Assembly: GCA_963921825.1 (NCBI GenBank)
Contig: OY997596.1
Coordinates: 12,467,001-12,531,000 of the forward strand
Reading direction: 5' to 3'
Origin: Erodium maritimum
Taxonomy: Eukaryota > Streptophyta > Magnoliopsida > Geraniales > Geraniaceae
DNA length: 64,000 nt
Position 1 is the first letter of the stretch. Every line of letters begins with the position of its first letter. The notes below the pieces were generated by a model, which was given only the letters and a program-made list of their open reading frames with translations, ran no database searches and was not told where the DNA came from. Shown here piece by piece: positions 5,662-61,892 of this stretch. The translations under genes were made by a program, and so were the position numbers.

Positions 5662-6165
5662 GAGCATGTACAGTGGGTCGGATCACATATGGGGATCATA
5701 ATGTGAAGATCATGTTGTGACTGAGATGAATTGTGATGTGATCCCTTAAAGGGGAAACCCTGTATCCTAACCTCATTTGAGCTTTGGTTTTCAATTCCAA
5801 ACCCAGGTTTACCTTTAGTGACATTTCCCAACTGTCACCTTTCAATTTTTTGCAGAAAGTATCGTTTACCGTTTATTTTGACAATTCTGTTAGTTTTTTG
5901 CCACGTGTCACTTCACCGTGCCGACACGTGGCCGACACGTAGGCAAACAACTGACGGAATCGTCAGTTTTGACGATTTTTGATACTTTCTGCAAAAAAAT
6001 TGAAAGGAGACAGTTGAGAAATGTCACCAAAGGTAAACCTAGGTTAGGAATTGAAAAACAAAACTCAAAGGAGGTTAGGATACAGGGTTACCCCTCCCTT
6101 AAATTGAACTGTGAACCACCGTGTGAGAATGATGTATGAGAATCATAATTTGTAGGGATGTTGGG
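5662..6165 (+). mobile_element. Tourist-like MITE, copy B, split by a Mutator MITE
   Basis: Begins GAGCATGTACAGTGGG directly after the TTA at 5659-5661, runs to TCCCTTAAA at 5750, and resumes at 6104 to end near AGGGATGTTGGG. Joined across the insertion it aligns with copy A at 4726-4884 reversed. The insertion is the 344-bp element at 5751-6094. Confidence 0.7.
5751..6094. mobile_element. Foldback Mutator-type MITE, 9-bp TSD
   Basis: The ends are GGGGAAACCCTGTATCCTAA and, reversed, GGGGTAACCCTGTATCCTAA. The arms stay complementary for more than 100 bp, so the unit would fold into a hairpin. TCCCTTAAA flanks it at 5742-5750 and 6095-6103, a perfect 9-bp duplication as made by Mutator-like transposases. 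It carries no coding capacity. Confidence 0.9.
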
Positions 6166-6320
6166 TTTTTGTTCGTTTTCTCGATTCAAAGTGTAAATAA
6201 ATGTTTTTTTATGATCAAAGACATTAAATAAATTATTTAGAACAATACTAACCTAATGACTATAAATTTATAAATTTTGGACACCGTTTACACAAAATCA
6301 AAATTTTAAAGGTCACGTGG

Positions 6321-6480
6321 CGCGTTTTGGTTGGCTAGCCGCGACTCATGGCTAGCGAATCAACGAACCACAATTGTGAGTCGCGAGTCGTGAGTCACAC
6401 GCTTTTTGCTTCCATAACAGTGCGAGTCGTGACTCACGATTTGCGAGTCGTGAATCATGATGCGTTGGGCTGCATTTTCT
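6321..6480. repeat. Cluster of GAGTCGTGA motifs
   Basis: The words gcgagtcgtga, gtgactcacga and variants recur in both orientations, giving many short palindromes. A looser set of similar words lies at about 16150-16300 beside the other Harbinger relic. No gene is visible. Confidence 0.5.
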
Positions 6481-6659
6481 CTTAGCATAACTATCATATT
6501 ATCTTTTTTACCGATTCACTAATTTAATCTTTCCAGCTTCATTTGAACTTCGATTGGCTTCAAATTTTCACCAATATTTTTGTTTTTTCAAGGGCTTTCT
6601 CTAAAGATGAGTGAATAATATATTTTAAAGCACGAAAAATAATTATTTCGAGGTTGATT

Positions 6660-7130
6660 TAAAAAAAATATATCTAGGTAATTTTTATCAACACTTTACC
6701 CTAATTTTACCAACACTTTACACTGATTTTATCAACACTGAACACTTGTTTTTATCACCTCATTTTCAAAAACTGAACATGATTTTTATTACCTCATCAC
6801 ATGTTTTTTTTATGAACACTGAACTTTAGTTCATCAACACTAAACACTAGGTTTATCACTAAATTACATGCGTTTTATCACCTCATCACATGTTTTTGTA
6901 TCAACACTGAACTCTAGTTTATGACCCTTATTATCAAAATTGAACATGATTTTTATCACTTCATCACTTTTCTTATCACTTCAGCACATGTTTTTTTTTA
7001 TCAACGTTTAACATTAATTTGATCACCCCGATATAGAACATTTATTAGTGAAGATTTATCAACACTCAACATTTTTTTTATCACCAAATATTAATTTTTA
7101 TTTTCATGTTTCAAAATATATTCAATACGC
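6660..7130. repeat. Degenerate AT-rich tandem repeat
   Basis: Two words alternate irregularly: 'tttatcaacactgaacac' and 'tttttatcacctcatcacatg', each with substitutions and T-run length changes. Nothing suggests coding. Confidence 0.7.
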
Positions 7131-7193
7131 TACTTGATAGATATCTGTTGGGAAAACAAAAATATTGGCGCAAGTTTGAAGCTAATCGGAGTT

Positions 7194-7797
7194 CCATGTG
7201 CACAAAATGTGACTCCATTTTTCTAACTTAATACCAATATTATTCTTCTCCCCTTCCTTGCAAACCTATGCACCGTGAAATAATAAATTTTGGTGTTTTT
7301 TTTTTCTCGACCAAATCCTCACTCCACTTCTTCGTTTGTTTCCTAAACCGATTCACATATGACCATGAGAGAGAGAGAGAGAGAGATAAAGATTGCACGA
7401 GTATAATTGGGCTGAAAAGTAAACTATGTTATTACTATGGCGTGCTTACAAATTCCCATCCATGACTTTTGATTTTTTTTTCAAAAAAACTAACAATTCC
7501 CGTTTATTTTGACGGAACAATTACATTGGCACGTCGATTCTCCTCCTCCTTCTCATACATGGCGTCTACTCCTTCTACCTCCCCGTCGTCACTCCTGAGG
7601 ACTTCCAAAAGGTCTACTCTCTATATGCATATGACCCGTACGTAGTTCATAGATAGACCCATACACACGTACGCATACATGTCCATCCCTTTAGAGATCA
7701 AGCTTGATGTGTCCATAAAACTATCCAAATCATTCTTGTAAGAACGCCATAATAATAACATAATTTACTTTTCTGTCCAATTATACTCGTGCAATGT

Positions 7798-7838
<41 letters not shown>

Positions 7839-8098
7839 GGTCATATGTGAATCGGTCTAGCAAACAAATGAGGAGAGTGGAACGAGGATTTGGCCAAGAA
7901 AAAAAGACACCAAATTTTATTATTTCATAGTGCATATGTTCGAAAGGAAGGAGAGAAGGGTAATATTGGTATTAATTTAGAAAAATGGAGTCACATGTTG
8001 TGCACATGAGGTTGTGCACATGAGGCTTAATATAACTGTATTGTCAAAATAGATAGTAATTGTTGGTTTTAAAAAAACAAAAGTCATGGATGGGAATT
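7194..8098. repeat. Interlocked long inverted repeats with captured exon
   Basis: Arm one (7194-7453) and arm two (7733-8009) are inverted copies judged by eye at about 85-90% identity. They share catgtgcaca, ctccatttttctaa, gattcacatatgaccatg and a (GA)n/(CT)n tract of different length in each arm. A second inverted pair, 7453-7512 and 8040-8098 (cccatccatgacttttg), overlaps the first, so one element carries a copy of a neighbouring sequence. The spacer holds a coding-like fragment at 7534-7627. Confidence 0.8.
7534..7627 (+). pseudogene. Possible captured first exon of a TM9SF (EMP70) gene
   Basis: One frame reads a short leucine-rich signal-like stretch followed by GVYSFYLPVVTPEDFQK. Plant transmembrane-9 superfamily proteins begin with a signal peptide followed by a conserved SFYLPGVxPxDF segment, and the match is close. 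The similarity ends right after the AAG, followed by GT, as if at an exon border. No initiating ATG is in this frame and no further exon is found. I read it as a gene fragment picked up by the surrounding foldback element. The identification rests on about 17 residues. Confidence 0.5.
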
Positions 8099-8162
8099 GA
8101 AACAAAATGTCAGAGGGGGTTTAGGATATGATTGTGACGAATAGTTGACTAGAGGGCAATAT

Positions 8163-8460
8163 TGACATTTCACTACTGCTGATCTTGACTTGGCTGACAG
8201 ATCAGATCCGTCACCTAAGTTAGCATATCCGTCGGCTAGGAACTTGGCTGACGGATGTACCAGTCGGCCAAGATTCGTCGGCCAAGTCCCGTCGGCCAAG
8301 ATTTTGGCCAACGGATAAAAATATATGTCACGCAAGTTGTGACTTGGCTGACGGATTGAATCTGTCACGCAAGTTGTGACTTGGCTGACGGATCGCATCT
8401 GTCACGCAAGTTGTGACTTGGCTGACGAATACAATCTGATGGATCCGTCAGAATAAACAG
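8163..8460. repeat. Tandem array, 37-bp units and decayed relatives
   Basis: Three units start at 8326, 8363 and 8400 exactly 37 bp apart (tgtcacgcaagttgtgactt plus ggctgacgga and six to eight variable bases). To the left, 8163-8325 contains looser relatives with cttggctgacgg and gtcggccaag in both orientations. The array is flanked by direct copies (8055-8175 and 8457-8575) of a ttaggatatgattttgac-type segment, which look like old element ends. Confidence 0.8.
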
Positions 8461-8689
8461 TAATTGTTAGTTTTTTAAAAAAATCAAATTCTAGGATGAG
8501 ATTTGAAACAAAAAGTCAGGAAGGGTTAGGATATGATTTTGACTTATATTTGGGGGTTAGGATTGACATTTATCCCTAATATTTATTATATATTTTTGTC
8601 TACTTTTAAACTCAATATAATTTGTGCAACTTCGTGTAGCATTTAACCATGAATCTCAATCCTTTTAAATAACCAAAATAAAGATCACA

Positions 8690-9640: not shown

Positions 9641-9670
9641 AGACCTAAATTATTATTACAACAATGTTTA

Positions 9671-15923: not shown

Positions 15924-16010
15924 TTTTGATCGAATCTTGTGTGAGAAATTTGGGATTTTGAGAGGAAAGTTGGAGAAAAATGTAGCGGTTTGATGAATGG
16001 GATGAGGGTA

Positions 16011-22438: not shown

Positions 22439-22564
22439 TGTTGGAATAGGTTTTCTGCTATTCTCATTGATGCCAAGTGATTAAATACACGTTAATCTTG
22501 TTTCAAATACAAGATATACATCATATTTGAATTACAAAATATAAACAGATAAGTATATCTAACA
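22439..22564 (-). repeat. 3' LTR of copia element
   Basis: Read on the minus strand it starts TGTTAGATATACTT and ends CCAACA. It matches the 5' LTR apart from about seven substitutions. Confidence 0.93.
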
Positions 22565-22581
22565 CACCCCCTCAGTCTGAG
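22565..22581 (-). other. Polypurine tract
   Basis: CTGAGGGGGTG on the minus strand immediately before the 3' LTR, the expected second-strand primer. Confidence 0.75.
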
Positions 22582-25500
22582 CGGGAGGAGGCAGAACGTT
22601 CAGACTGGTCTTGAAATCAGTGAAGAGGACTTGAGGGAGCCCTTTGGTAAAGATGTCTGCAACTTGGGACCGAGATGGAACATGAAGAACCCGAACATGG
22701 CCTTTTGCAACTTTTTCTCTGACGAAATGGATGTCGAGTTCAATATGTTTCGTTCGCTGATGTTGCACTGGATTACTGGCTAGATAGATGACAATAACAT
22801 TGTCACAATAGACCAATATGGTCCGAGATAAAGGACAATGGAGTTCCAATAAAATATTACGGAGCCAGCAAGATTCAGATACAACATTAGCAACTCCCAT
22901 GTACTCTGCTTCAGTGCTAGAACGCGAGATGGTGGGTTGACGCTTGGACGACCAAGAAACGAGATTATCACCCAGAAAAATGCAATAGCCTGAGGTGGAC
23001 ATGCGAGTGTTTGGATAGCCGGCCCAATCAGCATCAGTATACGACACCTAATCAGATATCCGCGAAGAATATAAATGGAGTCCCAAGTGAAGAGTCCCTT
23101 GCAGGTAGCGAATGATGCGCTTAAGCGCTCCCATATGTGAGTCTCGAGGGTCATGCATGTGAAAACACACTTGCTGAACGGCATAGGAGATATCCGGACG
23201 AGTAAACGTGATGTACTGTAGGGCGCCGGAAAGACTGCGATAAAGAGTCGGGTCAGCAAATGGAGCGCCAACGGTACCACTGACTTTTCCCTTTGTATCG
23301 ACCGGTGTCGCGGATGGGGAGCAAGAACACATGCTGGCACGACAAATGATCTCCTCAGTGTACTTCTTTTGAGATAAGAACATCCCACCCGTATGTTGGG
23401 TGACTGCAATACCCAAAAAGAATGATAACGAGCCAAGGTCCTTCATAGCGAATTCCGAGCTCAGCGAGGCCATAAGAGAGAGTCGAAGATCATGACTCGA
23501 AGTCGTCATTATGATGTCGTTCACATATAACAACAGAAACGCAATATTAGAGCCACAACGGTATATAAAAAATGAATGATCAGATTGACTGTGAGCAAAG
23601 CCAATAATGGATACAAAATCCGTAAATCGCTGAATCCAGGCCCGGGGAGCTTGCTTGAGCCCATAAAGTGATCGTTTCAACAGACAAACATGATCAGGAT
23701 GAGTTTTGCTCCGAAAACCAATGAGTTGATGCATGTAGACCGTTTCTTGGAGATTGTCATGAAGAAAAGCGTTCTTGACGTCCAACTGATGAATAGGCCA
23801 TGACTGAGAGACGGAAAGACTAAGAACAGTCCGGATAGTAGCCGGCTTCACGACCGTGCTAAATGTTTCTTCACAATTAACGCCAACCTGCTGAGAACGG
23901 CCATCACCTACAAGAGGAGCTTTATATCGCTCAAAAGAACCGTCAGAACACCTTTTATGACGAAAAACCCACATAGACTGAATCACATTAGTGTCAGGAG
24001 GACGAGGAACTAATTGTCGGGTCTTATTCTTAATTAAAGCATCAAACTCGTCAAACATTGCTAGTTTCCAGTGGGGATCAGCTAAGGCGAGTATGGGATT
24101 TTTTGGGATAGGAGATGGCTCAAGAGAGGTATGAAGATTAAAAAGGGTACGGGGTTTAACAATACATGTTCGGCCTCTTGTTGTCATGGGATGGATTGGA
24201 CGAGGTGGTGGAGGTGTTGGAGCCGAGGAGAATGGTGGCGTGGTGTGATGTTCTGGAGGTGAAGAAGGGCATGTCCGTGAAGAGGAGGACCCGGGTTGGT
24301 CGGGTGAGGCAGGAACTGGAGAGCCGACGTGGTTAGTGGACTGTGTCGGGACAAATGGGCTGGCCATGACAGATGGGCTGGCTTGGTTAGGAGTGGGAAC
24401 CACTGCTGGTGGGTTGGAAACGCCAACTTGTTGGTCAGTCAAGGAAAGACGAAGCAAGGGTGACGACGAAGGATCCAAAAATGAATAATCATCCTTCGAT
24501 GGGTTAGACAAACAAGAGAACGGGAAAACCGTTTCATCACAAATAACATGTCTACATGTAATGATCTTTTTATGTTGAAGATCAAAGCATTTGTACCCTC
24601 GGTGTTGTGCCGAAAATCCAATAAAGACACACGGTGTTGAGCGAGATTGTAACTTGTGAATTGTAGTGGAAGGAAGAAGTGGGTAACAAAGACATCCAAA
24701 CACGCGAAGATGAGAATAAGTCGGAATTCGATTATAAAGAAATTGAGTTGGAGAAGAAAAATTAAGCAATTTAGAGGGAAGAATGTTATGCAAATACGTA
24801 GACATATGAAGAGAATGATGCCAGAAAGAAGGTGGTAAAGATGTGTGAACTAGTAAAGTACGAACCAAATTATTTATAGCTCGGATTTTGCGCTCAGCGC
24901 GACCATTTTGAGATGATGTGTGGGGACACTAGAAATGAAAAACCATCCATGTAGATGCACAAAATCGATGAAATGACGAGTTATCGAACTCTGTTCCGTT
25001 ATCACATTGAAAACTTTTAATGGAGCAACCAAATTGAGTTTTAACAAATGCACTAAACATAGTGAAAACAGAAAAAACATCAGATTTAGCACCCAAATGA
25101 AAAGTCCATAAGAAATTTGTGTAATCATCAAGAAATAGCAAATAATAACGATGACCAGCCGAGCTTAAAATCGGAGTAGTCCACAGATCAGCATGAATAA
25201 TATCAAACGGAGAGGCAATAGAGTTTGAAGAAGTAATAAAAGGCAACCGAACATACTTGCCAAATACACAAGACTGACAAATAGAATGTTTATAATTGGA
25301 AGAACAAGAAATTAAATGTTGATGACGTAAAGTAGCAAAAACTGGATCACCAGGATGACCTAATCGGGAATGCCAAATCTGAGGGGATAAAGCAGCAAAT
25401 GCCGATGGAGAACCAGAAGACACGGGTGAGGTGACTGGATAGAGATCACTGGAACTGTTACATCTCAACACCGGAGTGCCCGTCCGAAAATCCTTCACAG

Positions 25501-41650: not shown

Positions 41651-41689
41651 GGGGGGGGGGGTGGGGGGCTTGAGGGAAAGAGAAACCTG

Positions 41690-44110: not shown

Positions 44111-44545
44111 GGGATAATTTCACCTCAGTACCCTAAATATTCTATTTTTCATTTAGAGTACCCTAAATCTTTTTAGTATCACCACAATACCCTAAACTTT
44201 CATTATTTCATTTACGTACCCTAAATCTTTTTTGTGTCACCTCAGTACCCTAAACTTTTATTAATTTCATTTTAGTACCCACCGTTAACTTTACCCTAAA
44301 TTTGGTTGTTAATGAGGGGTATTATGGACATTTAACCTGTTTTGAATTGAAAATCAGATGGAAAGTTAACGGTGTGTAGTAAAATGGAATAAATAAAAGT
44401 TTAGAGTACTGAGGTGACACAAAAAAAGATTTAGAGTACTCTAAATGAAATAATGAAAGTTTAGGGTATTGAGATGACACAAAAAAGATTTAGAGTACTC
44501 TAAATAAAGTATGAAAGATTTAGGGTACTGAGATAGAATTACTCC
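44111..44545. mobile_element. Foldback Mutator-type MITE, TSD TTATAATAA
   Basis: Ends GGGATAATTTCACCTCAGTA and, reversed, GGAGTAATTCTATCTCAGTA. TTATAATAA flanks it at 44102-44110 and 44546-44554. The arms pair along most of the 435 bp, with internal tandem copies of 'taccctaaa' words. No coding capacity. Confidence 0.9.
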
Positions 44546-44970
44546 TTATAATAATTATAAACTATAAAAAAAATTATTGAAAAAAATTATTATTATTTCA
44601 GTATTTTTATAAACTGAAACAATAGTATTTACGGATATAATCTGAGAAAATAGAAGTATAGTTTGGAGGGCAAAAAAGTCTATTTGTATACTCCGTTAAC
44701 GCTCCATCCATTTTTGGACGGAATCGGTTAGTTATTAATATTTTTCGTTAGTCTTCCGATGACACTTGAAAAAGGTATATTCCACAAGTGCTGATGTAGG
44801 AATGAAAGGAAAAAAAACAGGTGTCTAATGACGTTTCACCAAGGATTAATTACCTTTAGTACCCCTTTTCTATTGGTAACACTCATTTACTACCATGATG
44901 TATTAGTAACGCTCTGAACAAAATTTTGGTCAAGTTTACACCATTTTGATGATCTATGACCAATTCATAA

Positions 44971-46521
44971 GAGCATCCACAAACATCTGGCCGGCAGCTG
45001 GCGAGATGGCGCTGGCGGGGACAATAAAAAATGGGTTATTTACGATAAGGTACCCTAATGTTTCGTCCACGAACGATAAGGTACCCTAATGATTCGTCTT
45101 TGAACGATTTGGTTTAAAATTGGCATATTCCGTTAAAAACTAACAGAATATTCCTCTAACTTACACATTTTCAGTTAAGTGGGGTGTAAAATGACGATTT
45201 TACCCTTTCTTATTTTAAGCTTATAAATTAGATAGACAAAATTACCATTATACCCTTAATTATATAATACAATAAAAATATAATAAATAAATAAATAAAT
45301 AACTGTAAATTATTTAAATTTAAAAATTAAATTATTTAAAATAATATAAAAAAATAAAAAAATTAAAAAAATTAAAAATCATTTTTATTTTTTTAAAAAT
45401 TTTATTTTATTAAAAAAAAATCGCAGCTCGCGAAATTCGTCTTCTCCGGCCAGCTCCGGCGTGGTCTCCAGCCACCCGTCCTCCGTCGGCGTCGTCCCCA
45501 GCCACCCGTCCTCCTCCGGCATCTTCCCTCCTCCCTCTTCCACCACCGGCGTCGTTGATTTGGTTCAGATTTGAACCAAATCGCGATTTGGTTCAGATCT
45601 GAATCAAATCGCTATTTGGTTCAGATCTGAACCAAATCAACGACGTCGGTGGTGGAAGAGGGAGGAGGGAAGATGCCGGAGGACGGGTGGCCGGGGACGA
45701 CGCCGGCGGAGGACGGGTGGCCGGAGACCACGCCGGAGCTGGCCGGAGAAGACGCAGAACTCGATCTCCGATTTTTTTTTTAATAAAATTAATTTTTTAT
45801 AAAATAAAAATGATTTTTATATATAAAACTGTTTTAATAAAAAATGATTTATATATAAAAAAATTAATTATTAAAAAATAAAACTAATTAAATATAAAAT
45901 CTGATTTTAAAATATAAAAATCTGATTTTTAAAAAATAAAAACTGATTTTTGAAAGAAAAAAATTCAGTTTTTAAAAAATATATTTTTTAAAAATATATA
46001 TAATTTATTTATTTTATTTTGAAAATTAAAAGTAATTAGAAAATATAAATTAAGGAAAAATAAAAACTGAGGGTATAATGGTCATTTCACTATTAAGTCA
46101 AAAGTCAACTGAAATGTCAAAGGGCAAAATAGTCATTCTACATAATTCTGTTAGTTTTTTAACAGCATTAAACCAAATCGTTCGTGGACGAATCATTAGG
46201 GTACCTTATCGTACACAAAATTCATTAGGGTACCTTATCGTTCGTGGACGAAACATTAGGGTACCTTATCGTAAATAACCCATAAAAAATGATTTTTTAT
46301 GGCTTACAGCCAGCACTCCCAGCCAGCGAGCTACAATGGTAAAGCTTTTTTGTTGGCTTTTAGCAGCTCCTTCTATTCACATTTTTGCTCCCCGCCAGCG
46401 ATAAGTGTCGGCCTTAAGCTCCAAGCCAGCACTCCCCGCCTGCTCCCCGCCAGCTCTCAGCCAGCTCCTCGCCGGCGTTTTCTCCCCGCCAGCGCCTTAC
46501 CGCCCATGATTGTGGATGCTC
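44971..46521. mobile_element. Tourist MITE (TSD TAA), middle level of nest
   Basis: Begins GAGCATCCACAAAC and ends GATTGTGGATGCTC, with TAA on both sides (44968-44970 and 46522-46524), the PIF/Harbinger-Tourist signature. Without the insert at 45033-46281 it is about 300 bp, rich in ccagcactccc/ccagcgag words. Confidence 0.88.
45033..46281. mobile_element. 1.25-kb palindromic Mutator-type element, inner level
   Basis: Ends GGGTTATTTACGATAAGGTA and its complement. ATAAAAAAT flanks it at 45024-45032 and 46282-46290, a perfect 9-bp TSD. The whole element is an inverted repeat centred near 45600. The arms continue through AT-rich tracts into a G+C-rich core (45421-45760) where ccggaggacgggtggccgg on one side pairs with its complement on the other. 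The centre repeats 'atttggttcagatctgaa'. The frame at 45687-45881 is part of the palindrome, not a gene. Confidence 0.92.
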
Positions 46522-46716: not shown

Positions 46717-47232
46717 GGGGAAACCTCAAAAACATGCCCTCGAACGACCTTTGTTAGCAAAAACATACTGTGGTTACCTTTCTTTCTCAAAAACATGCTT
46801 ATACCTTTTGTTTATTATCAAAAAGTAGCGACTTATGTTTATTATTTTTATTTTTCCGTTATTTTGGACGGAAAACGAACATGTGCTCGACACACAGTCT
46901 TTATATTTATCATAAATACTGAAATTGTCCATATTCCTCTAGTCTAAATATTGGATATGGTCGTACGAGTGTTCAATTTCTTCTCCGGAATTTCATTTAG
47001 ATGAGAGAAATAGGGACAATTTCAGTATTTATGATAAATATAGACTGTGTGTCAAGCACATGTTCGTTTTCCGTCCAAAATAACGGAAAAATAAAAATAA
47101 TAAACATAAGTCGCTACTTTTTGATAATAAACAAAAGGTATAAGCATGTTTTTGAGAAGAAGAAAAAAAAAGTAACCACAGTATGTTTCCGATAATAAAG
47201 GTCGTTCGAGGGCATGTTTTTGAGGTTTTCCC
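46717..47232. mobile_element. Foldback Mutator-type MITE, TSD AAAGAAAAA
   Basis: Ends GGGGAAACCTCAAAAACATG and, reversed, GGGAAAACCTCAAAAACATG. AAAGAAAAA lies at 46708-46716 and 47233-47241. The arms of roughly 200 bp pair around a centre near 46960. It starts 17 bp right of the outer nested element. Confidence 0.88.
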
Positions 47233-47660: not shown

Positions 47661-50600
47661 TTAACCCATTGCCGAAGCTTGTGCGTCATCAGAATCCACC
47701 TTTAGCTGGATAAAGAGATAAATTTTAAATATCTAAAACATGTACCACTTGATTCAAAATAAGAGAAGAATTCATACCAGCTTGAGGTGATTCAGCAGGG
47801 CTCCATGTAATAGCCTTCTGAGCTTATCACATTGATCAGCCATGTGACCCGTGTTCATCAATTCCTCAAGTTGGCACCATAGGCGTTCGATTGTTGTGTA
47901 TGGAAACCAAACTGCAAATGGCTTTTTGCGATTTATTATGCCTGCTGGTCTCTGTAGAAGTTTGGAAACGGTAGCATACTTCAGTAAGCCAAAGACAGTA
48001 ACAGTGTCATGTATCTATATTCAGATTCTCCAATGACAGTTTCTAATATACTTTGCCACATACTTTCACTGAAAAGTTCCTAGTATCCCCATCAGGGTGG
48101 TTACAAGTCCAGTATCAGATTTGTTGGGAACTATTTTTGTCGTACATCTTTTAACTTATTACTTGGCCCAGGTCATTAAATAACTGATATAGATATCATG
48201 TCTAGACCCAGGAAAAGAATTAGCACTCATTCGAGTGCACCTTCATCTGGTTTCAAATCAACACCAAATGATTTGTCACTGTATTTGTCTTCCATTAGAA
48301 CAAGTAATTTATTTCTCAGTCCAGAAGAAGAAAACAATTTACCTGCTGTACTTCACAATTAGGACCTGTTTTACTTTCACAGCAGGACTACAAGGGATAT
48401 CAGTTCATTTAAAATTATATTGATAATAACACGTGTTCATGGGCAATGGGATGGGATCTAGTGATGATTGCACGAAATTGATAGGAAGCGTTACTCCCAC
48501 AAAAATATTCCTCAATATTTACAAGTTTTCTTGCCCACCACCTAAACCATTTTAGCATTCCAAATTGTCTGGAAGAGCCAACACCTATTGGGCAAAGTGT
48601 GTAACTGCTTAGTTTCCTTAAGCATGGGATTGGGTTCACGCTCTTATTCACAATTACTTGCTTGCTCACCGAAATCATTTTAAGATTACAAAATCTATGA
48701 AAGAAACAATAATAGGTGGAAAATAAAGAATGAACCCCGCATAAAATCAGCAGATATATCTAACAGTTCGGGAGAACACTATTGTCTGAAATTCAGTCAT
48801 GACCAAAATACTCTAGTTTACTATATAGGAAGTAATCACCATTCGAGTTAAAAAGTTTTGGTAGAACACAGTCCAAGTGTTCCATATCACAGGCATCACA
48901 GTCCATTTTTAATGAATATTAGATGATAATTATAAATTACTTAAGAAATTAATAATATTATTAAGAATTGATGAATTATTAATGAAATAAGGGGTATAAT
49001 CATCTTTCAGTTCATCATTCAGTTCAAACACAAAAGGGTAAAAATGTCATTTCATGTTGTCCTGTTAATTTTTTCTAACAGACGACAATGGACAATATTT
49101 TGTGCACCTTAAAAGCGTGGACAAAAGATAAGGTCTTTTTTTTGGCCGTGGACTATTTTAGGGTAGGTTTTGGCAATTAACCCTTTATTCTATTCAACAA
49201 AGGTGCACTCATGTTACCACTTCTAGACTCCCCAGACAACATCATGAGTCAAATGTACTACCTTCAAAAGAACAATCTAATTGGGCCAAAACTTTACAAT
49301 TGGCAAGAGTTCAAAATAACAGACATTCAAAAGAACTTCAACAGACACAAGGGAAGAAGCATTTACCATTGAAGCAAATGATTCTGTGTACTCAAGCAAT
49401 AGATTTGTAGCTTCAGTGTATCGGCCATGATCTACATACAATCTAAGCAGAGACGAAGGATTTGATTGCTTGCCAGTCATATCCCAGACCCCTTCCCTTC
49501 GGCCATCCTGTTACAAAAGTAGGAACACATTGACAAGATGGATTGCTAATTAGTTTGCTCACAGGAGCGAAAAGCTATTCCTATAATTGAAGAGCCATTA
49601 AGATTGCTATATATGTAGAAAATGCACAACAAAAATAATCCTGCAAAATAGTGTTGCTACTACTTCTAACCATGAGAATATGGATAAACAATGACTATAG
49701 AAATTATTAAGCACAACATATAAGAAAATCAAGTTATGTGGTCTGACAGGGATTGTAGTCCCCCAAGTCACAAGTTCAGGGTTCTTACAAGTGATGTAAC
49801 AAATATAATTGTGGGATAATTGTCCAAAACTACCCTAAAGTTTCGTCCACATATGAGTTGATGCACAAAGTTCTGTCCACGCTGTGTGGCTACCCTGAAG
49901 TTTTGTCCACGCTTTTGTGGGTGTATTGAAGTTTTGCCCACGCTTTTGTGGGTGCATTGAAGTTTTGTCCACGCTTCTATTCAATCCGGGAAGCACTGCC
50001 CCGAGACCCCAGACCATCATTTTGAACATCCCTATTATGTCAAAACTAAAAAAGTCGTGGACAAAACTTCAGGGTAGCCACACAGAGTGGACGAAACTTT
50101 GTGCATCAACTCGTTTGTGGACGAAACTTTAGGGTAGTTTTGGACAATTATCCCTATAATTGTTGCCAGTTAAGTTACCAATCAATATATGAATGTCATG
50201 AACAGTAATGTATCATTTCTCAAAATTGTCCAAGTGATAAATGCTTTAGCTATATACACTCAAGCCCATCCAGGCCGATTTATTGCCAGAAAATTACCTT
50301 GAACATATGAACAAGCCAAAGAGGCAATTCGATATGAGGATCCGTGCGAAGAAGGGTTTCGGCAACAATTATGGGTAATCTAGCATGAAATACTTTGTAT
50401 TTTCCCTGAAATTCATAAAAACTGCATGAGAATGGAAGATTTGTAAGGACATAAATAAATATTAGCAGTAAAAGAAAAGGTGAAGATGTAATATACAGTT
50501 GTAATTAAACAAGAAAAATAGGGCACCCTCCTCACTACTGTGGTGAAACGTAACCCCAAAAGTGGTAAAAGTTTGGAGTGTGTTTAAATAGTCCAATGTC

Positions 50601-53600
50601 GAATAAAAATAGAAGAAAAAGTTCTACACATAAAAACGCAAGAGTAACCCAACCAATAAGGTTGACATTTTAATGGTGGAGTCCGACCCAAAAATAGTTG
50701 ACCCATTTGACAATTCATGTTATGAAAGTTGGATTGATTTGTACGTGGGCTTTTGTCATGTGGCCCATTTGTTGCCCCCTGTGGCTCTGATCTCTATGCA
50801 GATGGATTACCTACTATGGCAACATGTAAAAGGCTAACCATAAATGTGAGAGGGAGGGCTGAAGTATATAAGTCTCACATCAACAAAAAGGAATTTCACT
50901 AATAAAGTTGACTTTTAGTTGTGAAGCCTGACACGTACTATGAAAGCTGGTAGAAATAAACTGTATCATGATAAAATAAGTACTCCAAGCCAATCAACTC
51001 AGTATGACACAGAATCGGTGGGAGGATCGAACTACAAGGGTTTAGTTCTGACATTGGAAGTTGGAACACCAGAAAATTAACTTAGAGCATGTACGGGTTA
51101 AAACATTGCTAACTCCCGAACACCCTATACTGCACTAATGAAGCAATAAAATTAGATAAGGGTAAAAGGTTGGTAAGCGGTCATCAGCATAAAATGTTCA
51201 ACAGCTAACTCGTAAATAGCTAAACATGCTAATTGTTAGGTTCTCAAACCAGAAAAATGAAATTGGTTTATATTATGATCAAAATACTAACAAGATAAAG
51301 CTCAAGGGTTTCCCATTGACTATTCCCCTTGGATTTTTCAGTTGGGCCCATAGGACTCATATCAAGAGAACCATGGACAGAAGCTTCATCCCTTGATGAT
51401 GTCAGCAAAAGATTCTGGAGTTTGGATCCATTCCTGGTAGTTCACAATTACTCATTACTAAACCATGACAGGACTAATATTTGCAGTTCATCATAAAGAA
51501 AATGAGGAAAGACATCGTACCCAACAAATGAGGAGCCTATGCTATTCAGACAGCATTTCAATGTCATCGTAGAGAAAACTTTTTCCAGCTCCCTGAGCAG
51601 AAAGGTCAATGTTACGCCTCAAGGCACATATGCAAGAAAAAGGATATTAATACGATAAAACTTTTCAACAAGAGTGTAAGAACCGTACCTCTGTAATCCT
51701 GAACCCTTCCAGAATTTTAAGAGAATCGTAAATGTCATGTCATACAAATTTGCCTGGACTAAGAGATCAACCAAATCTGATGGAGCTTTCTCAGTTCCTG
51801 GAAAGGAAAATACAATGAAGCGCACAGAAAGGAATTCATACAAACTATCTTTGAACAAAATTGTGAAGATAGGCCAGATGCACGATGAAAGCTAGCTTAG
51901 ACATCAGTAATATGTTCAAAACTTAGAAACCCTCACGACATTACTAGAACTCATCCCTTAAAATGGGAACCAATGAGTTATGTGCCGGAGAAAATGAAAA
52001 TATGGCAGTCATGAAGCAAATAATGCCAATCAGAAACCTTTCCTGAATACCAGTAATTACTGGCCCAACATATTAATACCATTGGGATCATAAGCAATTC
52101 TTGTTTGGAGACGCATTAGATCATTAAGCAATGCATCGATTAACGACAATGTTGAAACTGGGCAAGAAATTACTGTTGGGGCAGCTATAGTTTATACACT
52201 TCCCACAACAATCATCGTCAAAAGCTATGAAGTCAACAGTTACTCTTCCCTCACTACTATGCAGCAGAAAGGTTAGTTATGATGACTCTAAGGTCCTTAC
52301 TACAGAGTGTTACCATATAAGTTTTATCTAAGAGAATCCATGCTCCTTACTTGGTACACACATATTGTGTCATTTCATATGACATTCTCCACCTATACAT
52401 ACTGATCTAACATGCAGCTAGCTCGTTCAGATCCCTAAAAAATGGAATTATATTATGATGATTGTACAAGATTAACAGATTCAAGGATATAAAATGAGGT
52501 TAAGATGAATGTTTACCGGTAAATGTCCACCTCACATTCACCGATGAAAGCAAGTACTCAGCTGATGTCAGCATAAGCTCATTTTCAAGTTTCTCAATAT
52601 CAACACAGAATTGTGTCTTTCGAGAACAAACTTCGTTAACAGCATCTGCAGCAAAAGTGAAAAATGTAATACTCCATAAGTACTGTAACTAAGGGAAGCA
52701 AAATATAGATAAACAAGTTATGACATCAACAAAAGAACTAATAAGAATAACTTATTGGCTAATGTACTACTCACTCTGTTCTTCTACTGCTTTTCTCAAC
52801 CGTTTACTCGGATAATGACCATTGTGAAGAGAAGTTTCATCAAGGTGAGGATCAATCCATGCATATGAAGGATGAGCAAGATGCAAAGCATTAATAGCAG
52901 TGGAAAGGCCATTCAACCTCTCCTGCAGCACCAGAGAAAGGTGCTGGTTGTCTTTCAGAGCTGCTTCGGTTCTTAGCCGATTTGAATATAGATACATGTA
53001 AGTTGCTGCTTTACGCCAGTTATGTCGGTACATTTCAAACGAGTAAAACACCTTATATGGATTTGGTTTTGCTGAAATATCGGAACGTTCTGCCTATAGA
53101 ACATAGCAAAAAATATCGAGCATATAAAATGTTTACAAATAGAAAAGGTAAACAGTACTTTTTTTTCATTTCAAGAAATATACCTTCCAAGCGAGCTCTC
53201 GCTCAACCTTCTCTGTTAAACCAATAAAAGGTAGTTGGCCATTGCAAAGTATCTACAACAAATAAAAAAACTCCAATGATAACATGCAGATAGTAAAATC
53301 AGTCTTTGAGTAACCAAATGGAAGAAAACCACTCATATCAGCTTTTCCGCAAACCAGAAACGAGTTTCATCACTTTAATCATGGAAAATGAAGCTCATAA
53401 CTCTGACAAATACATGCTAAAAATTGGACACTAGAATGGATATCATTTGATGTTATACACAAAGCGGATGATTTCTGCCTATTAAATTATCCACCTGCCC
53501 AGACAGCTCTACTGCAATTAGGTGTTTAGGAGAGAGTAATCCACTCCAAAGCTTCAAAGAAACATATGGGTTGATTCACCTATCTACCACAAGTTTAAAG

Positions 53601-56600
53601 ACAACCCAAACACACGAAGTACATCTAAGTTACCACCACAATTCATATAAATTAGAAGGAAAACTCGCAGAAAATATGGTAAACAATAAAGTAAGAAAAG
53701 TTTTATTTTACAAACCTTTGTGGCACCACGTTCATTAAGGACTATAAAGAAACGTCTCAAACATATGTACTTGCTCTCTTCATCTGGATTCGAGATAATG
53801 GCACAATACGCATCATAGAAATGATTTAAATCAAGCGTAAATTTGAAGACATTAGCCCAAAGGCGTCCTTTGATAGTAATAGCTGATTCACTGAATGGGT
53901 CTCTCCCATTGGCATCACCATCACGATCTTCCTCAACTTGCTCAAGTGCAGCTAGAGCAAACTGGCAAGCACCTTCATTAATGTTGTACTGCTCAAATAT
54001 CTGCATAGCCCATTGATAGTAAAGAAGCTTCCATCCGGAAGGTGATACAGGACCAGCTGCAGGAAAAGGAAAAAAACAGTTGTAAAACAAAACTATCTAT
54101 GTGTGTTTGAATAGTTGTGATTCTTTCTAAAGGAACTCACTTAAACTAGCAAAGGGAAATCCAAGTGCTGAAGATAACCCCTGCAAAGCCTGTGAAGAGC
54201 CATGTCCAGATGCAGCCCTGAATAAAAATTATATTAACCACAATGACAATTAAAACCCTCATGAGAAATGTAAATAAATCAGGATTCAGAAGGTACGAAA
54301 AAAGGCAGATTTGTGGTAGAATATATGCTGATAACAATACAAAGACTTCTATTAGCAATAAGCACTCATATAAGGCAACCAAATAGCTTACTTCAAATCT
54401 TCAAGCTTCTTTTTTTGAGTAAAAATCTTCAAACTTCTTAAAATGCTATTGATCAAAGAATGCATCTTAGCCCATTTTCTTCTCTTAAGTATAAAATCCC
54501 ATATAGAATAAAAATAGAAAACTTGAGTTACATGTGCCAAATCCAACTATTAAGGCTGACCTCTAAAAGTTGTAATGCCTGACCTGATACATATAGATGT
54601 ATTCAAACATCTACATGGTATCAGAGCCTTGTTGAAAGTGGGGTCCAAATAACGGTCGGACTATTCGACTAAAAAGTCGTGGGGTATAATAATTGGGTTT
54701 GACAGCTCCCTTTACAAACACCTATTTTTTTTCTATGTAATTTGATGTGGGACTCTATACAACACTCCCCTCACAGGTAGAGCTGGACTTTTACATATAA
54801 AACATAGTAACAAAGACATCTGCATATGAGCAGGAAACCACAAATGGAGGAGACAAATCCAAAGCAACCAAGCTCTGATGCTATGAAGAATTTTGATATT
54901 GGGCAACACAAAACGAATCAATATGGAACATTTCAACACTCTTCATCATTATCATTATTTTGCCTCCATAAGGCACATACAGGATAATGATATGGTATTA
55001 AATTTAACTAGGAATAAGTAAAGAATATTGAGTACCTAAAAAAACAGCGAACGGCTTCACATAATTTCTTCTCTTTCTCCATGCCGTGCAATATGCCTTG
55101 TGATTGAATAAGAAGGCAGCATCCTAGAAGATGGTGAAGGATGCACCATTTACCATCAGTGTCTTGAACACTTCCAGAGCTCTTCTCTTTCCAGGAATGT
55201 GCCTCCACAATGTTGAGTAGGCACTTAATGACAAAAGTAATTAGTTTTAGCAATGCCCTCTAAAAAAAAGAACCAGCATTCCATATGAAAGATAAAAGGG
55301 CTAACCTCAACAGCATCACACTGACCATGCCTTAGTAGTGTAAGGGCAAGCTCGGTTGACTGACTCACAAAGGCACGTGACTCTTTTCCGGTGCTACCCC
55401 AAATAATTAAGCTACTAAAGTTCTGCACCAAAGCAATGAAGCTTCTCGGACTGGGGAATCGTTTCAAAGGAAAGTAACACTGATCCCCAGAAGAACTATG
55501 ACTATTGAGCAATAGTATAAAAGCCAATGTGAAATCACATTTGCCAAGCTTCTCATTCCATGAATTTTTTACAAAATCGCTATCTGGATCACAGAAAAAT
55601 GGTAACTATCAGGACAAGGCTAAGTTAATATGTCAATAACCTCGTAACACACAACCAGCATTAAGCAATGGCATACAATATGGATTATGTCCATCTAGAG
55701 TTCATGTATTTGGTTATCTAGCATATTTACATAAACAGAGGTACAAGAATAAGTTCATTTGTTACGATATAAACAAGATTTCAATTTCATAATTTAATAT
55801 AAGTAATAAACATATGAGTAGATTATTTCTATCTGTGCAGAAGAGATGATAAAACAGTTAACAAGAAAATTTTGTCAGAAAAATTGAACACAAACCTACC
55901 AATTTTTAATGACGAAAGTTGAGAGCTGAAGTCTGCATCTGCAGGTGATTCAGATGGTGTGGTGCAGAAGAAATGAATAATAAGCCACTCTGAGATACTT
56001 TCTCGGACCATTGGAATCAACTCACTTTGTATTTTAGATATGTCATCCTGCAGCATATTGATCTGTACTCCAATATTGAAGAAATTGTAAAGTTATCCCA
56101 ACTGATACGTGTTTTTTATTACTATGATGATTTACACCATAATCATAAGGGTTAATTGCTAAAAACTACAAAAAAAATTGTCCACATGCTAAAAACTACA
56201 CTGAGCTTAAAAGTGGACAAAAACATATAATAAGGAATTGTCCACAGTCTTCTGTTAAAAATAATGAACAAAACATTCATTTCTGTTAAGTATTGGCCCA
56301 AATGTTTTGACCGCAGTACTTCAATGCTATATGTATCGTCTACATATCCTGTAGGGGTTAAGAGAACAGAATATTCTGTTCATTATTTGTAACAAAAGAC
56401 TGTGGGCAATACTTATTGTATGTTTTTGTCAACTTTTCAACTCAATGTAGGTTTACAAAACTTTTTGTAGTTTTCAGCAATTAACCCTAATCATAATATA
56501 ACCATCAAGGAACCAAATGAGCAAACATATAGCTATACAATATAAGAAACATGACAACTACAAATGGTCAAATTATGAACATGTTATTTCTAAACGATAT

Positions 56601-59600
56601 AATGCACATATACTATTAACAAACAGTTCAACAACAGAAATGGTTGCCTAATAAGATGATCATACAACAAAGAAAATGAACATACTTGACACATTAAACC
56701 TCAAGTTTTCACTCTCTCTTAATGAAACATGGGCCAAAGAATTCTTCTCGCAACAAAGCATAATAAGAGTACAAAAAAAGACAAATTTCTGCTCAATAAG
56801 AGTTGTGACCTCTAGACAGACAAACCAAACAGTGTAACCACATGTAAAATTCTTTTGTTTACCTACATATAGTTCATAAGTTACTAATAATATATGAAAT
56901 TATAGATCATCAAAAACATATTGAAACTGAAAGGTGTACCAAAATATAAAATCAGCAACTTACTGACCTGTCCACTAATTTTGACCATATAAACCAGAAA
57001 CAGAAGAATGTCCAATGCTGCCTCAAACATCACCTTAGCAACTTGAGAGGACGACTGAACCACAATCGAAGTGTTCATATTAAATAACATCTCAGGCCCC
57101 CCTTTTTGCATTGTTTTTGGTGGGACTAGAAATTTTATGTAGCTTTCAATAACTTCCAAAACTCTATTCCATGAGGTAGCTTTTTCACGCAAAGCAAAAA
57201 GAGACAACAACATGTCAATAGAAAATTTTCTCAAATTTTTGTGATCAGTCAGACCCTTCTCCAAAGCAATATCAGCTCCTAAGTCTGCCATTTGGTGTGA
57301 TGTCACTGATGAGCTATATCCAGTTTCCAGAATTTTCATAAAGCAAAGAACAATCTCTTCAGGTGAGAGGACGGGTATGCTAACAAGTGATTCATAATAT
57401 ATTGGAGAAGCAGTTCTACCCAGCTGTTGGCTGACACTCATAACGCATCTAAGCACTTCAAAAAGAATATCATGATCAAGATCGTCACCAGATAAGCCCA
57501 CTGCAAATGCGCGATCGCTCACTTCATTCGAAGAGCCTATCAAAAAATGCAATGGATGAATTACATCTATCTTTACCATATTTAATTTGGATACTAGTTT
57601 TGTAAACATATATCCTTGACAGCATAGATTTAGATCACCTACCATGAGTAAGCAGCTCAATATTGTCTGAACAACGAAACAAAGAGACAGAGTTCTTCCT
57701 GATTAAGCCAACTGCACCTGTTGATGATTCAAGCAGCAAACCAAATGGTGCATTGTTCTTGCACCAGTAATGAAAATATCGGCTGCAGAAATTTTTCCAC
57801 CAACACAGAATTGAAAGTGGACTTTCCATTGTACCCTGCATATGATGCGCAGTACTATCTTATAGTTACTTCCATCTAGATGATGAAAATATCAAAGAAT
57901 TGTAGGAAAAAAAAGACTATCTATATCTATTACAAGTATAGAAAAACCTCTTGTTCAATCAGCAAAAGAATTTCCTTCTTCAGTACACCAGCTGTTAAGG
58001 ATTGGAACTCGGAATCAGTCCAGTGTCTGTTGTAGTCCAAGAAAGTAGCACGCAAAGCAATATTATGATGAACCCCGGGATGAAGCAGTCTACGTAGGAA
58101 AACAGACAATACAAATGGCACAATACGATCCTGAATCTGTGAAATTTACATTTTGTAATCATAAATGAGAATTCCACGCATACCATCAATGAGCAAACTA
58201 GTCTACAGAAATATGAGGAAGGAATTCAAAGATTACGACAAGGTTTGAGAAACATGAAAAGATAGAGCCATGAAGTACACACTTGCAACTCAGGATGAAA
58301 TAAATTGAGAATCCCTCTCTCATTCCAGCCTTTAGCCCGGTTTTCCTTTCTAGAACATCAATACAATCATATTGAGGATTGGGATTCTCGCCAATCTATT
58401 CACTCCATGAGTAAATCAAGTGCGGTAATAGTAAAGAAATATGCATCTCTAATGAGCAAGCATGCCATTCACTACAGACACACCCCAAGGTGGTAACAGA
58501 AGTTTTTCATCTTCTATAGTTAAGGAGAAAAAAGAATTGCCACACATTACAACCTCTAATTTTGTCAGCAACGTGAATGTGAAATAGCAACGCTGACAAG
58601 TAGAACAACAGTAATAAATGACACATATACAGTACCTTCATCGAAGAAAATATTGAATGAGTCATCCAGAGAAGATCGTCTGAAGAATGTTCTGAGTTTT
58701 GAAATAACTGGTCAGCCACAAATTCTTCCTGCGAAGTATAAAATTGGGCTTCTTCCCTAAGAAGATGATTGCAAAAACAATTACTCATACATCAGAGCTA
58801 TATACTACTACAAAGTGTCAAACTCCAGTAAAGTCAAGAATTACTTTAAAACAATATAACTTAATTTAAAACCAACAGATATACATTTGACTTACACAGT
58901 AGCATTTGCAGCAAGCAAGCTATGATAAACCAATCCATTCTCTTTCAGTACATAGATTTTGTCAGAAGTAATCTTGACATCAATGCACCCCCCCTGATAA
59001 AATTGGAGCGGTGACAAACTAATATCAATGAACAATTTCACCGGAACAGATATAAAAAATCAAGTACAATGTTGAAGGAACATCAGTTACCTCCTCTAAG
59101 AGAACACTCTGCACTGAAGGTTCCACTAACAAAACAATCTTGTCTGCAAAACTATATCGAAGGCTATATACATGAATCCTCTCCAAGTTATCTTCCTTTA
59201 ATTAGGCAAAAAAAAACAATCCATTCATAGCAAACAATGTCAGCACAATGACCAAAAGAAAAGGAACAAAATTGAAGAGAGAAATATCTAATTCTTTGTA
59301 CTGAACAAATACTAAGCTCAGGCGCTTATTAATTGTATTCACAGAGTGAACCTTATAAATAGTAACACTTTAATTTAGTAAGACATAAGAGATCATATCA
59401 TCCATGTAGTTGGACTAAGCAGATAGTAAAAGATTATGCATTCTCTCAACGTCTAGTGCTCTTATGTCAAATATAACCACGGAGATAGACACCTCGTTGA
59501 ATCCCACGAACATTTATAGTCTTTACAGTGAAACGGAACACAGAAATAATAGAGAAGCAAGCAGATACGACCTATTATGGTCAAGAGATACATACCGTGC

Positions 59601-61892
59601 TATGTTTACATAGAATTGCGAACGGAAATATGTTCGAATTGTGCATGACTTCGCTCACCCACAACTGAGCAAATGTAGCTCCTAAAAGCACATGATGAAA
59701 GGAAAGCAAGATATGAATATGCAAGCTACTTCTATATATAAGGGGGAAAACAAGAATAGCCATCACAACAATGTGAACATGCTTAATTGCTTTAGAAGAA
59801 ATAATAGAACATGCCAGATCAGAGTAAACAGATAGCATATAGACAAATGTAACCCTAGGAATGAAATAATATATCACTTAAATAAAATATAATAAAATAG
59901 CAACTACAGATATCACATATGTTGCCATCTCTACATTTAGTAAGAAATCATTAACCCAAAAAGGACCAATTATAAGGTCAAAACTCACAAGCTGACGAAA
60001 AAGGATTTTTTTTACTTATCGGGGAGAAATCGATAAAACTCATTTTGTATTGGACATATATATAAATTAAAGACAAAAATAACAATAGTTTAGTCAATAA
60101 GATAGTTCCAAACAACTTAATGAGCTAAAACAAAAGCACAAACCATATTTCAAACAAAAATAAAATAAGAAACAAAACACTAATAATCGTAAATACAAGT
60201 TTTTTATGCTAAAAAACACAAAATTGACTAGTTTTAGCCAAACCGAATTTTGAGTTCGACCGAGTTTTAGATCGATTTCCACTTATCAAACTCGGTGGTA
60301 ATACAGAACATAAAGAATGAACCCAAATGAAAAATAAAGCATACGAGTAAGAATAATTTAACCAATGGGTTGTCTCTATTCCCTCATGCCAACATCATGT
60401 GTTGTAGGCAAGGTTCTAAATAGCGGTAACGGTCAAAACGTAGTGAGGTGCCAAGTAAGTTTTTCAACTTATCATGGAGATATTGGCAAATCATATTTAG
60501 TATTAAATATATATATATATACATATATTAATAACAATAATAATACCATTGATTTTTCTATGTTTTAATTATTAATAAATATTATATATGTATATATAGA
60601 ATAGGGTTAAATATCGAAACTTACTCTTAAGTATTGGTCACGAATACTACACTACCCACGTTTTCAAAATGAACACTACACTACCCTTAAGTATTGGTCA
60701 CGCGATTTTGTTAGTAAAAATGGACGGAATTTTTCATTCCGTTAGTCATATGACCTCAAGTGTCATACAATGGATGGTAAAATGGTGTTTCCCCTTAATT
60801 ATATGACCTCTACACATTTTATAAGGAACATTACCATTGTACCCTCGTTATTGTTCCTTATAAAATGTACAGAGGTCAAATACTTAAGGGCAAAAAACGC
60901 CATTTTACCATACATTATATGACACTTAAGGTCATATGACTAACGGAATGGAAAATTCCGTCCATTTTTACTAACAAAATCGCGTAACCAATACTTAAGG
61001 GTAGTGTAGTGTTCATTTTGAAAACTTGGGTAGTGTAGTGTTCGTGACCAATACTTAAGAGTAAGTTTCGATATTTAACCCTATAGAATATAAAATATTA
61101 ATACAAAACCCTCTTCATCTCTCTGAATTTTATTGTTAACGGCCCAAGCTCAAGTCCTACTTCAAATCCCAAACCCAATCTATCATTACCTAACCCTATT
61201 TCTGTTTCTCTATTTTAGCGTCTGCTCTTTTCTCTAAAAAAATTTCTCTAAACTAGCATGAGGTTAAAATTTCTCTTTTCTCTAATCTACTCCCCTTCTC
61301 TCTCTAAACCAGATAACCCTAGCCCACTTCAACAATGCCTCCGGCGTCGTTGATAGATTGGTTGTTGTTGGTCTTGACATGGCATTACAAAGACTTCATT
61401 GTTTTTTGGCATGTGTTTCGCAGATATGTGGTCGACGTGAGTAGATCTAACCGAGCTTCTTCTCTCGTCGTCAAGCTTGTGTTTCAGAGAGACGAGGAAG
61501 ATGACCGGGTATGGGGCATCGGACTTCCTCAACGTTCCTCTACCTTGTGTGTTTTGCATTCTTTGATGATTTTTATCAGGATATTGAACCAACGTGAATA
61601 TTCTTGAATCGGTGTTATTGGATGGCTAGCTTGACCCATTGAACGTGTTTTCCACTTATTTCACTAGTTCAATGCACGAGAGACTACAAACCTTTAATGC
61701 ATGTGTGCGAGATGAGCACCAATGACGAATGACTAACACGTGATTCTTGAAGACCTAAAAGGTATGATAGACTGGTGGGGAAACCGAATCACTTTAGTAT
61801 TATTAAACTGAATATTTCATTTGTTGTAACTATTGCAAATCAGTCTCTTAAATTCTTTATGGTGGTCATTAGGGTGTAGTAGTTTGCATCTT

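What the first reader, a model, noticed from the sequence alone, without database searches (positions are those of the whole stretch)
5751..61081. Group of seven foldback elements with 9-bp TSDs and GGG(G) ends but unrelated interiors
Elements at 5751-6094, 44111-44545, 45033-46281, 46717-47232, 49813-50154, 56149-56487 and 60604-61081 each have an exact 9-bp flanking duplication. They start GGGGAAAC, GGGATAAT, GGGTTATT, GGGGAAAC, GGGATAAT, GGGTTAAT and GGGTTAAA, and are inverted repeats over most of their length. The interiors do not match each other. This looks like one transposase recognising only a very short terminal motif while the body diversifies. I know of no named family with exactly this behaviour, though foldback Mutator-like MITEs are known.
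Basis: partly seen in the sequence, partly recalled or inferred. Interest (0 to 1): 0.8.

Follow-up and report, generated by a model that had tools for sequence, protein, structure and literature searches.

The report
Jumping-DNA families sharing 30-base end code
A plant chromosome carries seven hairpin-like jumping DNAs from different families, and although their middles look unrelated their ends follow one spacing code (a 9-letter cap, then a short motif repeated about every 30 letters), which suggests how one kind of transposase could move many dissimilar elements.

Summary
In detail: all seven elements lie at the stated coordinates with exact 9-bp duplications, and a blind scan returns exactly these seven. 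They are Mutator-type (MULE) foldback MITEs. Each of the six that could be searched belongs to its own high-copy family in this 763-Mb plant genome; 33 of 48 loci examined carry exact 9-10 bp duplications. Across nine families the ends share a 9-bp cap (about GGGDWAAHY) and TACCCT at positions 19-24, and the motif recurs about every 30 bp, though two families fit the pitch poorly. Genome-wide, one cap plus ACCCT occurs 1,380 times against 64 for its reversed control, and the two-unit pattern 381 against 0. Duplications share a T...A edge bias. An abundant MULE with a transposase ORF has the same pitch but another cap. The autonomous partner of the GGG elements was not found. Best reading: units are transposase footprints; common descent and anti-silencing sites are rivals.

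The parts
5751..6094 (.). Foldback MITE, family E5751 (cap GGGGAAACC; AACCTC at 19-24, family majority AACCCC); duplication TCCCTTAAA
44111..44545 (.). Foldback MITE, family E44111; TACCCT at 19, 49, 78, 107, 136 and TACCC at 166 of the left arm; duplication TTATAATAA
45033..46281 (.). Large foldback element, family E45033; units at 19 and 50; palindromic G+C-rich middle; duplication ATAAAAAAT
46717..47232 (.). Foldback MITE, family E46717 (cap GGGGAAACC; TGCCCT at 19-24); duplication AAAGAAAAA
49813..50154 (.). Foldback MITE, family E49813; TACCCT at 19 and 79; duplication TATAATTGT
56149..56487 (.). Foldback MITE E56149 (TACAAA at 19-24); lies between two NUP160 coding blocks, probably in an intron; duplication TAATCATAA; copy number not obtained
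60604..61081 (.). Foldback MITE, family E60604; TACTCT at 19, TACCC at 50 and 79; duplication TATAGAATA
44843..44907 (+). Left end only of a relative of L048:1208-1478 (GGATTAATTACCTTTAGTACCCCT...); no right end identified
49104..49183 (-). Right end only (read on the minus strand GGGTTAATTGCCAAAACCTACCCT...); no left partner with a matching duplication found within 8 kb
8517..8576 (-). Right end only (minus strand GGGATAAATGTCAATCCTAACCCC...), beside an older foldback region; no left partner identified

Best explanation
The seven are non-autonomous Mutator-superfamily elements (MULE-type MITEs of foldback type) from separate high-copy families. Their ends share a positional code: a 9-bp cap of about GGGDWAAHY at the cleavage site, then units of about 30 bp in which TACCCT sits at 19-24 and recurs near 49, 79, 108 and so on. 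I propose that each unit is one footprint of a MULE transposase DNA-binding domain. The transposase reads cap plus in-phase units rather than a long fixed sequence, cuts next to the GGG, and inserts into AT-rich 9-bp sites that tend to read T-N7-A. Bodies and unit spacers are then free to drift and turn over, so families look unrelated but stay mobile. Shown: ends, 9-bp duplications, many copies, cap, position-locked TACCCT, pitch of about 30 bp, T...A bias, MULE transposase genes with open frames, one such MULE with the same pitch. Inferred: that the units bind transposase, and that one or a few transposases serve several families.
For: Blind scan returns only these elements at 9 bp. Duplications at copies: exact 9-10 bp in 33 of 48 loci of three families, within 6 bp of the matched ends. 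TACCCT at 19-24 over nine families, C21 in 9 of 9; 0 of 2,000 rotations reach the best column or best 6-column window. Self-similarity at lags 60, 31, 30, the top three of 63. 24 of 32 later ACC motifs in phase, rotation null mean 3.8, maximum 16 of 5,000. Whole genome: 1,380 matches against 64 reversed control, 381 against 0 for two units; of the first 100 listed, 95 have pitch 30 or 31. T at duplication position 1 in 26 of 35 and A at position 9 in 28 of 35. MULE domain: 1,627 first-look candidates, 150 scored, all 150 over the cut-off. Family-A MULE units at offsets 2, 31, 61, with MULE, DBD_Tnp_Mut and SWIM domains. MURA of maize binds a conserved ~32-bp TIR motif (PMC3310237, passages); [quoted passage not shown]
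Against: No element with GGG-type ends and a transposase was found; family A has another cap and its right end was not reached. Within families, units are no more conserved than other parts. Families are not independent: five are alignable in part, so shared position may be descent. The pitch is not seen at lags 29-31 in E60604 (rank 17 of 63) or E56149 (rank 11), none of the ACC motifs of E46717 or E56149 is in phase, and E56149 lacks CCC at 22-24. The period 29.7 and the motif were chosen after seeing the arms. The genome-wide counts are dominated by a few families (9 of 15 listed end pairs are 494-499 bp).
Confidence: 0.55

Rival explanations
1. Common descent with separate partners: the families descend from one ancestral MULE with a 30-bp array, and each is or was moved by its own related autonomous element. 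The code is inherited, not a shared recognition signal.
For: Five of seven arms are partly alignable. Each of six searched bodies is its own family. Many diverse MULE-type genes exist.
Against: E5751 and E46717 are not alignable with the others yet carry NACCTC/TGCCCT-type blocks at 19-24; cap, position and pitch persisting while spacers diverge suggests constraint.
Confidence: 0.25
2. The arrays are binding sites of a sequence-specific anti-silencing protein (VANC-like) rather than of the transposase; only the cap and first unit serve transposition.
For: VANC proteins bind short motifs that form rapidly evolving tandem repeats in VANDAL MULEs, and VANC6 motifs also occur in AT9TSD1 elements unrelated to VANDAL (PMC5735166, passages). 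Several arms contain GTTTTGTCCAC or ATTGTCCAC strings, which resemble the VANC6 motif AGTTGTCC.
Against: Here the array is phase-locked to the element end and confined to inverted ends; nothing seen requires a second protein. No VANC gene was searched for.
Confidence: 0.1
3. The arms are slippage or minisatellite by-products of hairpin replication, with no function beyond the cap and first unit.
For: Replication slippage was proposed for tandem TIRs of a tomato MULE family, with a tree test that did not support it clearly (PMC3310237, section 3.3). Units are no more conserved than spacers within families.
Against: Similar pitch and phase occur in families with different unit sequences and in the family-A MULE; slippage alone predicts family-specific unit lengths.
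Confidence: 0.1

Closest known systems
Maize Mutator (Mu) elements
   Same: 9-bp duplications and varied internal regions; MURA binds a conserved ~32-bp TIR motif and acts in trans (PMC3310237 and PMC3909067, passages; PMC2774946, search listing). Cap resembles the recalled Mu terminus GAGATAATTG.
   Different: [quoted passage not shown] here the TIRs themselves differ between families and share only cap, position and pitch.
MuTAnT of Medicago truncatula
   Same: Mutator-type foldback MITEs; search mask for the ends GGGGTTTGCTAGAACA, so GGGG start (PMC4486113, part 1 of 4 of the text)
   Different: Targets TA microsatellites; an autonomous partner was identified there
Ac-mMITEs of pineapple
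   Same: Abundant Mutator-like MITEs, some with 9/10-bp duplications, autonomous partner sought and not found (PMC8449440, passages)
   Different: Associated with (TA)n microsatellites; passages seen describe no unit array
[quoted passage not shown]
   Same: Long, internally repetitive TIRs with several transposase binding sites (PMC3688188, abstract)
   Different: P superfamily, not Mutator
SIRC cassettes of Arabidopsis
   Same: Short direct repeats separated by diverse sequence, thought to come from MITEs (PMC10342631, passages)
   Different: Defined by repeats and low-copy spacers; passages seen describe no fixed phase to an element end
VANDAL MULEs and VANC targets
   Same: MULE-associated tandem short motifs that diverge rapidly between relatives (PMC5735166, passages)
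   Different: VANDALs lack TIRs or have short degenerate ones (PMC6446971, passages); VANC motifs lie in non-coding regions through the element

Membership tests
Mutator superfamily (MULE) | Target-site duplication of 8-11 bp | tested here: met
   9 bp exact in 7 of 7 window elements; exact 9-10 bp in 33 of 48 loci. Range from PMC6446971 (passages)
Mutator superfamily (MULE) | Long terminal inverted repeats | tested here: met
   Arms of about 100-200 bp for most
Mutator superfamily (MULE) | MULE transposase encoded between the same ends (autonomous partner) | tested here: inconclusive
MITE | Short, without transposase, many similar copies | tested here: met
   Six of seven are 339-516 bp, one 1,249 bp; no transposase frame in them among ORFs of at least 150 aa; family searches. 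E56149 copy number not obtained
Foldback element | Inverted repeats over most of the length with internal tandem units | tested here: met
   unit pitch weak in E60604 and E56149 at lag 29-31
VANC target arrays | Bound by a VANC protein and hypomethylated by it | not testable with these tools
   Needs binding and methylation data
Pack-MULE (for 45033-46281) | Captured host gene fragment inside | not tested
   G+C-rich palindromic middle seen but not compared with genes

The most novel reading that the evidence does not exclude
Plant MULE-MITEs obey a general positional end code (9-bp GGG cap plus TACCCT-type sites at 19+30n) that lets one or a few transposases mobilise many families with no alignable sequence. 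The 'family' in such systems is set by spacing rather than by sequence, and bodies and spacers turn over, perhaps to escape small-RNA silencing.
Probability: 0.35. Interest if true: 0.75.

Novelty: new variant of a known kind. Interest (0 to 1): 0.55.

Why it matters
How MITEs with no recognisable autonomous partner are mobilised is an open question; in pineapple the partner of Mutator-like MITEs was sought and not found (PMC8449440, passages). A spacing-based end code would make this testable: it predicts which transposases cross-mobilise which MITEs, gives an annotation pattern that groups many copies now split into unrelated families, and predicts that moving a unit by half a pitch harms transposition.

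Tried and rejected
Within-family conservation of units: one search seemed to show conserved arms and a variable centre, but the fetched loci had not been turned to one orientation. After orientation conservation is flat along the element in all three families examined, so I drop that argument.

Highest-copy MULE (family A) as direct partner: its conserved left end, TTAAAAAGGCCTTCTGAGG, has no GGG cap. The scan of M73 for duplication plus inverted ends gave nothing, but M73 does not reach the right end, so that scan says little.

Four 8-kb windows around PF10551 hits: one hit only, a G+C-rich 1,783-bp pair with a 10-bp repeat and 14 of 20 matches in L082, taken as chance. Three strong PF10551 hits tested (ranks 1, 7 and 8: L049, L055, L056) are FAR1-type host genes.

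A regular-expression count of cap-like strings in the window and loci (180 matches, 118 clusters) is a poor test: ACCCT comes first at position 20 in 37 of 57 matches that have one within 60 bp, but those are mostly copies of two families; by cluster it is 3 of 12.

Listed GGG ends on contig C1 were compared by eye with listed transposase hits: none flanked, but only 100 of 1,380 and 100 of 381 places were listed.

Literature: the string GGGTTAATT with 'transpos' gave 38 papers; of the 15 listed, no title or abstract start concerns a plant element of this kind. Searches with foldback, Mutator, MITE, tandem-repeat, TIR and MURA terms (0 to 326 papers, 5 to 20 listed where any) listed no title or abstract start about a phase-locked 30-bp end code. 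The library lacks most subscription journals, so this is weak evidence of absence.

Resemblance of the cap to the maize Mu terminus (GAGATAATTG...) is recalled; a look for that string in PMC3909067 found none.
Full report
OBSERVATION. The seven elements are real and exact. A blind search of the window for an exact 9-bp direct repeat bounding at least 15 of 20 matching inverted ends returned these seven and no other; ten shuffled windows (mononucleotide shuffles in 500-bp blocks) returned none. Repeat lengths 8, 10 and 11 returned 13, 4 and 0 hits, none with GGG ends. A relaxed scan (8 of 9 duplication, 16 of 24 ends; 50 hits, those with low-complexity flanks not printed) showed no further pair with the cap at both ends among the rows printed.

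SETTING. The window is G000:C9:12467001-12531000 of a 763-Mb assembly of 40 contigs. It is evidently a plant: LTR-retrotransposon and LINE reading frames recognised by eye, a C1-domain protein and two NUP160 coding blocks on the minus strand. Element 56149-56487 lies between the two NUP160 blocks (53587-54096 and 56884-57699), so probably in an intron.

FAMILIES. Six of the seven were searched in the whole genome, and each is its own high-copy family: 1,581 first-look candidates (49813), 678 (5751), 3,106 (44111), 2,297 (60604), 4,572 (45033) and 403 (46717). These are candidates, not verified copies; 40 per search were scored, and the best of these run at about 94-97%, 93-94%, 86-89%, 95-97%, 83-92% (full-length ones) and 92-95% (then 84-88%) identity respectively. 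The search with 56149 did not complete in nine tries. Of 48 loci holding three of the families (the three window copies included), 33 have an exact 9-10 bp direct repeat within 6 bp of the matched ends (7 of 8, 12 of 20, 14 of 20), 3 have 8 bp, 2 have 9 bp with one mismatch and 10 have none. In 288 kb of fetched loci the blind scan gave 32 hits at 9 bp, 29 with a GGG end on at least one side; 8, 10 and 11 bp gave 12 (1 GGG), 5 (0) and 0. That count is biased because most hits are the copies fetched on purpose. Five lie elsewhere: L014:830-1491 (ends GGT/GGA), L046:2642-3047 (GAG ends, a 44111 relative), L048:1208-1478, L081:7467-7975 (a 60604 relative), and one non-GGG hit in M73.

SHARED TARGET. 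Among 35 exact 9-mers (7 from the window, 28 from copies and flanks; four further ones, from L005, L040, L042 and L045, were not typed in), 88% of bases are A or T against 59% in the window, position 1 is T in 26 and position 9 is A in 28.

THE HIDDEN CODE. Local alignment of arms beyond the first 9 bp links 44111, 45033, 49813, 56149 and 60604 (7 of 21 pairs with at most 2 of 100 shuffles as good); 5751 and 46717 stay unlinked. With the ends put in register instead, nine families with verified ends (seven from the window plus L048:1208-1478 and L014:830-1491) show a second conserved block: TACCCT at 19-24, with C at 21 in 9 of 9. None of 2,000 random rotations of the arms reaches the best column or the best 6-column window. 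The arms are self-similar at lags of 60, 31 and 30 bp, the top three of 63 lags tested over ten families; the left-arm best mean, 13.4 matches of 30 at lag 60, exceeds the maximum of 11.9 in 1,000 shuffles. By family, the best of lags 29-31 ranks first in five of ten, second in two, fourth in one, 11th in E56149 and 17th in E60604. ACC-type motifs after the first fall in phase with 19+29.7n in 24 of 32 cases (rotation null mean 3.8, maximum 16 in 5,000); left arms alone give 14 of 18; 46717 and 56149 contribute none. Motif and period were chosen after seeing the arms. Laid out by eye as a 9-bp cap followed by 30-bp frames, 46717 and 56149 also show repeated strings in register (CAAAAACAT, GCTAAAAACTAC).

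GENOME-WIDE TEST. GGGTTAATTD followed within 0-20 bases by ACCCT occurs 1,380 times against 64 for the reversed control. Of the first 100 listed, 70 put ACCCT at position 20 and 21 at position 19. Requiring a second ACCCT 12-40 bases further on leaves 381 against 0; of the first 100 listed, the pitch is 31 in 79, 30 in 16, 29 in 2, and 25, 28 and 33 in one each. A few families dominate: 9 of the 15 plus/minus end pairs listed are 494-499 bp long. So the counts show that the code is real and abundant, not how many independent families use it.

INNER MOTIF. CYGTTA/TAACRG occurs in the left half of 7 of 9 families against 1.9 expected from mononucleotide shuffles. Its meaning is unknown.

TRANSPOSASE. 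The genome has 1,627 first-look candidates for the MULE domain and 843 for the MuDR DNA-binding domain, 150 scored in each. Three of the strong MULE-domain hits tested are FAR1-type host genes. The most abundant MULE among the 30 fetched loci ('family A', 11 of 30 loci, about 97% alike) has a 691-aa frame with DBD_Tnp_Mut, MULE and SWIM domains. Its left end, aligned over six copies, begins TTAAAAAGG and carries AAAAAGRC units at offsets 2, 31 and 61. So it shows the same pitch without the GGG cap. Its right end and duplication were not reached. No element with GGG-type ends and a transposase was found.

MECHANISM. The maize transposase MURA binds a ~32-bp conserved TIR motif (PMC3310237, passages), and Galileo transposase has several sites in the tandem repeats of its long ends, which its authors suggest provide specificity from a short motif (PMC3688188, abstract). 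By analogy I infer that each ~30-bp unit here is one transposase footprint and that cap plus in-phase units define an end. This would explain why families with unalignable spacers keep similar spacing, 9-bp duplications and target preference. It is not proven: common descent, and anti-silencing sites like those of VANC proteins (PMC5735166, passages), remain live rivals.

WHAT CUTS AGAINST IT. Units are not more conserved than other parts within families. Families are partly homologous. Two families fit the 30-bp lag poorly, two contribute no in-phase motif, and 56149 lacks CCC at 22-24. The partner is missing. In family 45033, 20 other copies listed keep the terminal 60 bp at 100%, 12 of them among the 23 full-length copies of 83-92% identity. 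That fits end constraint, but the listing was cut and sorted by score, so worse ends may be hidden.

VERDICT. The finding is correct in its anatomy and understated in its key point. These are Mutator-type MITEs, a known kind, with a position-locked end code that I did not find described in the papers listed by my searches.

Noticed in passing
L073, L082, L085-L088 (family-A MULE): The 9 bases just before the conserved left end read GGACGAATT, GGAGGTTTT, GGATGTTTT, GGATGAATT and GGACAAATT in five of six copies: either a target preference GGANNWWTT or a degenerate cap. Counted with these 9 bases, its units would fall at the same positions as in the GGG elements.
   Followed up: partly
G000:C1:45074378-45077468: Two cap-type ends in opposite orientation 3,091 bp apart, a possible larger GGG element; sequence not read.
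   Followed up: no
L014:830-1845: Two different elements sit side by side with the same 9-mer TTCTTTATA to the right of the first, between them and to the right of the second, as if the second had inserted into the duplication of the first.
   Followed up: no
window 6400-8576: Large older foldback region with repeated CGTCAG/GACTTGGCTGACGGAT units next to the single end at 8576.
   Followed up: no
window 40673-41638: Longest inverted repeat of the window: arms of 296 nt, 92% complementary, 374 nt apart, not GGG-ended.
   Followed up: no
window 45354-45838: G+C-rich palindromic middle of the 1,249-bp element, unlike the other bodies; could be a captured and inverted gene fragment.
   Followed up: no
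arms of 49813, 56149 and the end at 49183: Units contain strings such as AAGTTTTGTCCAC or AATTGTCCAC, reminiscent of the VANC6 motif AGTTGTCC reported in PMC5735166.
   Followed up: no
window 22559-25948 and 31479-37022: Frames that look like a Copia-type LTR retrotransposon (minus strand) and a LINE (plus strand), recognised by eye.
   Followed up: no
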